Positions 4,545-4,700 of a DNA stretch of 64,000 nucleotides are shown piece after piece. Location of the stretch: contig JACATO010002131.1 in the NCBI GenBank assembly GCA_018389105.1, positions 1,106,001-1,170,000 on the forward strand. The letters run 5' to 3'. The position numbers and the translations under genes are program-made. Source of the stretch: Nautilus pompilius. Its lineage: Eukaryota; Mollusca; Cephalopoda; Nautilida; Nautilidae. Under the pieces are notes generated by a model that was not told where the DNA came from, made no database searches, and saw only the letters and a list, made by a program, of their open reading frames with translations. Every line of letters starts with the position of its first letter. Position 1 is the stretch's first letter.

Positions 4545-4700
4545 AGTCAAGGTGAATGTCAGTGTCCAGAGGAGTGCTACAGCTGTTCCGGATTTTGGTC
4601 CTCATCAGCAGTACATCCCTCTGACCCCACCGGAGAGCGACCATGTGACAAGGATTGATGAGTGAACTCACTACCCACTGAGCCACGATGCCATCTAAGA
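4545..4700 (-). repeat. tRNA-derived SINE-like element
   Basis: On the minus strand, TGGCTCAGTGGG (4674-4685) fits the Pol III A-box consensus TRGYNNARNNGG at every position. GGTCGCTCTCC (4632-4642) resembles the B box GGTTCGANTCC. The 31-nt spacing is normal for a tRNA-type promoter. Local GC content is clearly above the surrounding intron. The head is therefore tRNA-derived. The ends are not sharply defined and no tail or target duplication was identified. Directly after the B box comes the hammerhead-like motif listed separately. Confidence 0.65.
4564..4625 (-). ncRNA. Hammerhead-ribozyme-like motif (degenerate)
   Basis: The minus strand holds the core CTGATGA (4602-4608), then helix II GGA/TCC closing CCAAAA, then GGAAC where the hammerhead needs GAAAC (one substitution). 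A very short helix III follows (ACAG/CTGT) with GTA at the cleavage position (4578-4580). Helix I is supported by GTCAGAGG (4618-4625) pairing with CCTCTGGAC (4564-4572, one bulged G) and by an inner segment ACTG/CACT with one mismatch and one extra base. The order and pairing match a type I hammerhead with short helix III, as known in animal retrozymes and some SINEs. The changed core base and extra G suggest it is inactive or weak. Confidence 0.5.

What the first reader, a model, noticed from the sequence alone, without database searches (positions are those of the whole stretch)
4564..4625. Hammerhead-like ribozyme fused to a tRNA-type Pol III promoter
The minus strand has an A box and a B box 31 nt apart, followed within a few bases by a fold with hammerhead geometry: core CUGAUGA, 3-bp helix II with a CCAAAA loop, GGAAC in place of GAAAC, short helix III ending GUA, and a closing helix I (GUCAGAGG with CCUCUGGAC). 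Small animal retroelements carrying hammerheads (retrozymes, the Schistosoma SINE) are known, so this could be a decayed copy of a SINE/retrozyme-type family in this genome. One core substitution and one extra base suggest this copy is inactive.
Basis: partly seen in the sequence, partly recalled or inferred. Interest (0 to 1): 0.75.

Follow-up and report, generated by a model that had tools for sequence, protein, structure and literature searches.

The report
SINE carrying a relic hammerhead ribozyme
The spot is a worn copy of a short jumping element that occurs many times in this animal genome; its middle part appears to descend from a self-cutting RNA, and the family consensus keeps the full catalytic core although this copy has lost it.

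Summary
Window 4442-4697 (minus) is one decayed, full-length copy of a dispersed tRNA-headed SINE (family A; 515 first-look candidates, 40 scored). This copy is a poor hammerhead: no Rfam match. The 40-copy consensus has an exact type I core (CUGAUGA...GAAAC), a GUA triplet, helices I and II and a weak palindromic helix III. A type I descriptor fits it and only 16 of 963,177 shuffles. Rfam hammerhead models match copies at E down to 1.2e-4 (HH9) and 8.5e-4 (type I), always below gathering scores. Three further SINE types share a related head and the domain but not the 3' part; pairing holds in 87.5% of cells against at most 46.4% in slid controls, with a helix II pair seen as A-U, G-C and U-A. 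Activity looks dispensable: family B's consensus lost A6 yet spread, and 0 of 25 truncated A copies starts at the cleavage site. Best reading: a hammerhead-derived SINE body, now mostly dead. Hammerhead SINEs are known from Schistosoma, so this is a new variant of a known kind. Identity with a named SINE domain could not be tested.

The parts
4442..4697 (-). Full-length copy of SINE family A (consensus 1-260)
   Evidence: local alignment to the 40-copy consensus, which includes this copy; BLAST 84.7% over 261 columns; flanks AGCTTCATTCT / AGCTTTGTTTT are at best a worn target-site duplication
4626..4697 (-). tRNA-like head with A box (4685-4675) and decayed B box (4642-4633)
   Evidence: sequence against the consensus; ARAGORN finds no tRNA in the window or in the consensus
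4564..4625 (-). Hammerhead-derived central domain, degenerate in this copy
   Evidence: CTGATGA at 4608-4602; the base equivalent to the scissile one is A4578; no Rfam match for this copy
4442..4563 (-). Family-A-specific 3' body and tail ending in AAGTG-like repeats
   Evidence: consensus; a query of the last 123 nt has 1082 first-look candidates, 40 scored

Best explanation
The window holds a dead copy of a tRNA-headed SINE whose central domain descends from a type I hammerhead ribozyme. Shown: dispersed copies, many with target-site duplications; a tRNA-like head; a consensus with a complete hammerhead core; the same domain, with its helices still pairing, in SINE types with other 3' parts. 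Inferred: Pol III makes the SINE RNA and a LINE enzyme copies it from the tail. Inferred: helix III (ACA/UGU around a 2-nt loop) is too weak for efficient self-cutting by single RNAs, so the ancestral ribozyme worked slowly, or as a dimer through the palindrome, as in newt-type hammerheads. Cleavage would part promoter from tail, so low activity would be tolerated or favoured, and the domain persists as a structured body.
For: Copies and consensus. Core (CUGAUGA and GAA) in 12 of 40 copies; 18 of 40 show A at G12, mostly after C, as CG decay would give. Chance: 16 of 963,177 shuffles. HH9 model matches at E<=10 in 9 of 20 loci, 4 of 19 family A loci and 13 of 15 loci chosen for an intact core (best 30.1 bits, E 1.2e-4). 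RF00163 matches L041 (27 bits, E 0.011) and a type C copy in L062 (24.8 bits, E 8.5e-4 in a 441-base scan). 20 exact intact cores against 0 for the reversed pattern. A and B consensuses agree at 54 of 73 head and 56 of 66 domain positions. Seven representatives: 87.5% of cells paired, slid controls 29.5-46.4%; covariation score reached by 21 of 500 shuffles. Dispensability: B consensus CUGCUGA, with target-site duplications in many copies. Dimer-dependent amphibian hammerheads: PMC7229834, passages.
Against: No copy reaches an Rfam gathering score (30.1 of 52; 27 and 24.8 of 34). The best hit, L009, itself has CUGCUGA, so the score does not prove an intact core. The minimum-energy fold closes the core (-27.7 against -20.2 kcal/mol with the core open). 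Covariation is modest: 3 pairs with two-sided changes, which 236 of 500 shuffles reach, and on the first five representatives 104 of 500 shuffles reached the covariation score. Flank pairing of A alone is unremarkable (85 of 1000 shuffles as good; B 22, C 27). No truncation at the cleavage site.
Confidence: 0.76

Rival explanations
1. Chance or convergent hairpin: the SINE body is a stable rod that happens to contain CUGAUGA and GAAAC, with no ribozyme ancestry.
For: The best fold is a rod that closes the core; no gathering-score match; family B lives with A6 changed to C, as do 6 of 40 family A copies.
Against: 16 of 963,177 shuffles; HH9 match at E 1.2e-4 (loci chosen for the core) and RF00163 match at E 8.5e-4 for a diverged type; helix II pair 31-43 occurs as A-U, G-C and U-A.
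Confidence: 0.1
2. Active ribozyme in recent masters: SINE RNA cuts itself in vivo and cleavage shapes its life cycle (5' processing or copy control).
For: Consensus A keeps all core bases plus GUA; 20 intact cores were found.
Against: 0 of 25 truncated A copies begin at 123-125 after correction for target-site duplications; B spread with a changed core; cutting would part the promoter half from the tail half.
Confidence: 0.09
3. Retrozyme: tandem units give circular RNA that is reverse-transcribed.
For: Type I hammerhead in a short non-coding retroelement; family D forms tandem arrays; L062 has two domains about 210 bp apart.
Against: No second A or B match in 101 loci apart from one split copy; the D units seen after the first lack the hammerhead; the two L062 domains belong to different SINE types.
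Confidence: 0.05

Closest known systems
Schistosoma Sm-alpha / Sj-alpha SINE-like elements (Ferbeyre 1998, Laha 2000; known here only through passages of PMC2770079, and PMC8490949)
   Same: Short non-coding retroposons with a hammerhead (type I in Sm-alpha); PMC2770079 relates thousands of tRNA-Gln-like loci to Sm-alpha SINEs; high copy number
   Different: Sm-alpha ribozymes are called active in the title of Ferbeyre 1998; here most copies have a damaged core, and several 3' parts share the domain
Amniote intronic hammerheads (RF02275 Hammerhead_HH9; RECK and C10orf118 introns in PMC3088659 passages; also PMC6155905; that HH9 is one of these is recall)
   Same: Most frequent Rfam match here; CCAAAA(A) in loop II; both papers suggest descent from retroelement hammerheads
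   Different: Conserved at single intronic sites and active in vitro (RECK, C10orf118); the model has a larger helix III; scores here stay far below the gathering score
Metazoan retrozymes and newt/axolotl hammerheads (PMC7229834 passages)
   Same: Type I; weak helix III with a palindromic loop; dimers cleave better in amphibians
   Different: Those occur as tandem repeats and circular RNA; here mostly dispersed single units with a tRNA-like head
SINE superfamilies with conserved body domains (V, CORE, Deu, Nin, Ceph, Inv, Pln, Snail, Meta; list in PMC8010984 passages)
   Same: One body domain under different heads and tails; MetaSINE domain 66 bp, fish to cnidarians (recalled abstract)
   Different: Domain sequences not held here, so identity is untested

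Membership tests
tRNA-derived SINE | tRNA-like head with A and B boxes | tested here: met
   consensus, boxes judged by eye against recalled motifs; ARAGORN calls no tRNA in the consensus
tRNA-derived SINE | dispersed short non-coding copies with target-site duplications | tested here: met
tRNA-derived SINE | 3' end shared with a LINE partner | not tested
   no LINE was searched for; any likeness of the tails to LINE tails is recall
tRNA-derived SINE | Pol III transcription | not testable with these tools
   no RNA data
Type I hammerhead ribozyme | CUGANGA / GAAA core, GUH triplet, open helix I | tested here: met
   family A consensus; not met in the window copy nor in consensus B
Type I hammerhead ribozyme | helices keep pairing across families | tested here: inconclusive
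   7 representatives, 87.5% of cells, helix II 96.4%; 16 of 500 shuffles as well paired, 21 of 500 reach the covariation score
Type I hammerhead ribozyme | covariance model above gathering score | tested here: not met
   best 30.1 of 52 (RF02275), 27 of 34 (RF00163)
Type I hammerhead ribozyme | self-cleavage | not testable with these tools
   needs in vitro transcription
Retrozyme | tandem units each with a hammerhead | tested here: not met
   within the flanks held; L062 has two domains of different types
Retrozyme | circular RNA | not testable with these tools
   no RNA data
MetaSINE or other named SINE superfamily | its conserved central domain | not testable with these tools
   Nishihara 2016 not held; no domain sequence in the passages read

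The most novel reading that the evidence does not exclude
A deeply conserved SINE body domain (perhaps one already named for its conservation, of unknown function) is a hammerhead ribozyme or its direct descendant, and tRNA-headed SINEs of this kind are the mobile source from which the conserved intronic hammerheads of amniotes were domesticated.
Probability: 0.2. Interest if true: 0.82.

Novelty: new variant of a known kind. Interest (0 to 1): 0.6.

Why it matters
Why some SINE body domains stay conserved across animals is an open question (PMC6887750 passages), and the source element of the amniote intronic hammerheads is only inferred (PMC3088659 passages). A hammerhead-derived domain shared by several SINE types, matched most often by the HH9 model, would make both questions testable: transcribe the consensus domain, and search other animals' SINEs with it.

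Tried and rejected
Retrozyme reading: not borne out for A and B; rescanning each of 158 loci with the head and domain of A and B flagged 7, namely two D arrays (L120, L121, L142, L143) and three single copies split by gaps (L126, L127, L141). That rescan did not flag L062, whose second match one search had shown. 77 of the 158 loci are under 1000 nt, so neighbours may lie outside.

In vivo cleavage read from truncation points: no start at the cleavage site; starts crowd at consensus 106-111, in the helix II loop and 3' strand. Raw alignment starts gave only a marginal signal (5279 of 100,000 uniform draws as crowded). After correction for target-site duplications, partly by eye (L072, L075, L096, L109), 94 of 100,000; this second test is post hoc. 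In B, 2 of 40 tail-chosen copies start in the same loop, none at the cleavage site. An RNA break in the A-rich loop, or an RT block by the refolded 5' part (fold of 1-106), could explain it; neither was tested.

The RF00163 search of the whole genome scored 73 of 73,528 candidates and rang in 11 of 14 control genomes, none over the cut-off, so it says little beyond finding L041. Viral and prokaryote collections gave no exact match of the core pattern. Host identification failed: the COX1 family search did not complete and a PDB search with an exon-like ORF gave only a poor unrelated hit. A second sample of family A tails did not complete.

Biases: consensus copies are the best-scoring ones for the window copy; truncation samples are the best-scoring tails, so copies truncated past consensus 138 are missing by design; some loci are near-duplicates (L115/L116, L047/L060, L155/L156, L153/L158) and were counted apart. 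From the first pair count I left out L043, L062 and L121; L043 and the upstream copy of L062 entered the second.

Full report
What is there. The flagged 62 bp lie inside a 256-bp element, 4442-4697 on the minus strand. Its sequence gives 40 scored matches among 515 first-look candidates in its own 727.6-Mb genome: itself and 39 others at 77-83% identity. I aligned all 40. The consensus runs about 260 nt: a tRNA-like head with A and B boxes, a central domain, a 3' body and a short repeated end (AAGTGAAGTGAA). Many other copies carry clear target-site duplications of about 8-16 bp, so this is a retroposed SINE. The window copy's own flanks show at best a worn duplication.

Is the hammerhead real? 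In the consensus the central domain reads GUCGGAGGUAUGUGCUG-CUGAUGA-GGGCC-AAAA-GUCC-GAAAC-AGCUGUA-CAGCCCUCCUCUGGAC. That is a complete type I core with helix II, a GUA triplet and a helix I of CUG/CAG plus GGAGG with a CCUC run. The window copy has a damaged GAA side and lacks bases in helices I and II. Of 40 copies, 12 keep CUGAUGA and GAA together; 18 have A at G12, as decay of a CG would give, and 6 have CUGCUGA. A plain descriptor (core, helix II of at least 3 bp, A-U start of helix III, not-G at 17, helix I of at least 3 bp) fits the consensus once and 16 of 963,177 dinucleotide shuffles, both strands. Rfam scans at E<=10 give Hammerhead_HH9 in 9 of 20 loci, in 4 of 19 family A loci with Hammerhead_1 in L041, and in 13 of 15 loci that I chose for an intact core (none in L144 and L151). 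Best is 30.1 bits, E 1.2e-4. The best hit, L009, has CUGCUGA, so a score alone does not show an intact core. Nothing reaches a gathering score, and the window copy has no match.

A family of families. L041, found by the Rfam search, led to 40 matches among 184 candidates, all fetched (30 read, ten more fetched). Most are family B: another tRNA-like head, nearly the same central domain, and an unrelated 3' half ending GGCTGATGACGACGAC (consensus of 25 copies; L042, L043, L049, L062 and L067 left out as other types). Type C (L041, L043 and a copy upstream in L062) has a third 3' part, and family D (L049, L120, L121) a fourth. A and B consensuses agree at 54 of 73 head positions, 56 of 66 domain positions, then 17 of 23, and do not align beyond. 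On five representatives 91.3% of cells pair, against 27.5-47.5% when partners are slid, but 104 of 500 shuffles reach the covariation score. With L062 and L043 added, 87.5% of 112 cells pair (slid 29.5-46.4%), 16 of 500 shuffles pair as well and 21 of 500 reach the covariation score; one helix II pair is A-U, G-C or U-A. This check raised my confidence in the best reading from 0.72 to 0.76 and lowered the chance reading from 0.13 to 0.10 and the active one from 0.10 to 0.09.

Does it work? Three facts speak against present activity. First, helix III is only ACA/UGU around two bases; as an intermolecular palindrome the eight bases are worth -11.1 kcal/mol. This resembles amphibian hammerheads, which cleave well as dimers (PMC7229834 passages). 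Second, consensus B has CUGCUGA, an A6 change that should kill catalysis (established knowledge), yet B spread: 33 of 40 tail-chosen copies start within 9 nt of the 5' end, many with target-site duplications. Third, a cleaved 3' product would leave insertions starting at consensus 124. Of 40 family A copies chosen by tail alone, 15 start within 6 nt of the 5' end and 25 start at 12-138. None of the 25 starts at 123-125 after correction for target-site duplications; one (L109) did before it. The starts crowd instead at 106-111, in loop II and the 3' strand of helix II. The minimum-energy fold hides the core in a rod, but RNAfold does not give the hammerhead fold for the Rfam consensus either, so this weighs little.

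Conclusion. The domain most likely descends from a retroelement hammerhead. In this genome it behaves as a structured SINE body, with catalysis slow, dimer-dependent or lost. 20 exact intact cores were found (reversed control 0), some in near-duplicate loci.

Against the literature. Hammerhead SINEs are known from Schistosoma (PMC2770079 passages). Metazoan retrozymes are tandem and circular (PMC7229834 and PMC7761336 passages). The authors of PMC3088659 and PMC6155905 propose that the amniote intronic hammerheads came from retroelement copies like those of amphibians or coelacanth (passages). The SINE papers whose passages I read name nine body domains (PMC8010984) but showed no domain sequence. 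Nishihara 2016 is not held, so whether this is the Meta-domain, whose recalled length of 66 bp is suggestively close, stays open. Searches for a paper joining SINE body domains with hammerheads showed none beyond Schistosoma among the titles listed, at most 20 per search and in an open-licence library only.

Noticed in passing
L142 1-2664 (C1622) and L143 2464-5123 (C166): SINE-derived satellite: family D repeated head to tail with a 251-252 bp unit (tRNA-like head plus tail, hammerhead region missing); the first unit of each array still carries the hammerhead region. The arrays run on beyond the fetched stretches.
   Followed up: partly
family A consensus 106-111; family B 104: Apparent hot spot of 5' truncation in the helix II loop and 3' strand, several copies with target-site duplications.
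   Followed up: partly
L062 1299-1383 and 1511-1608: Two hammerhead-type domains of different SINE types about 210 bp apart in the same orientation; the upstream one has helix II GUGC/GCAC. L067, close to L062 downstream, lacks the upstream domain.
   Followed up: partly
L125: Family B copy in which the hammerhead region seems cut out between two GCTG repeats, head and tail kept.
   Followed up: no
window 22555-22839, 18480-18857, 17761-17988, 6235-6495, minus: Short ORFs that look like exons of an IQGAP-type gene (recall only; Pfam scan of all four and PDB search of one gave no support); the SINE would then be intronic in sense orientation.
   Followed up: partly
window 25767-26207 minus; 41675-41980 and 42327-42692 plus; 59912-60241 minus: Pieces of DNA transposon genes: DDE_3, and a Tc5-type HTH with DDE_1; the last looks Tc1/mariner-like by eye, without a Pfam match.
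   Followed up: partly
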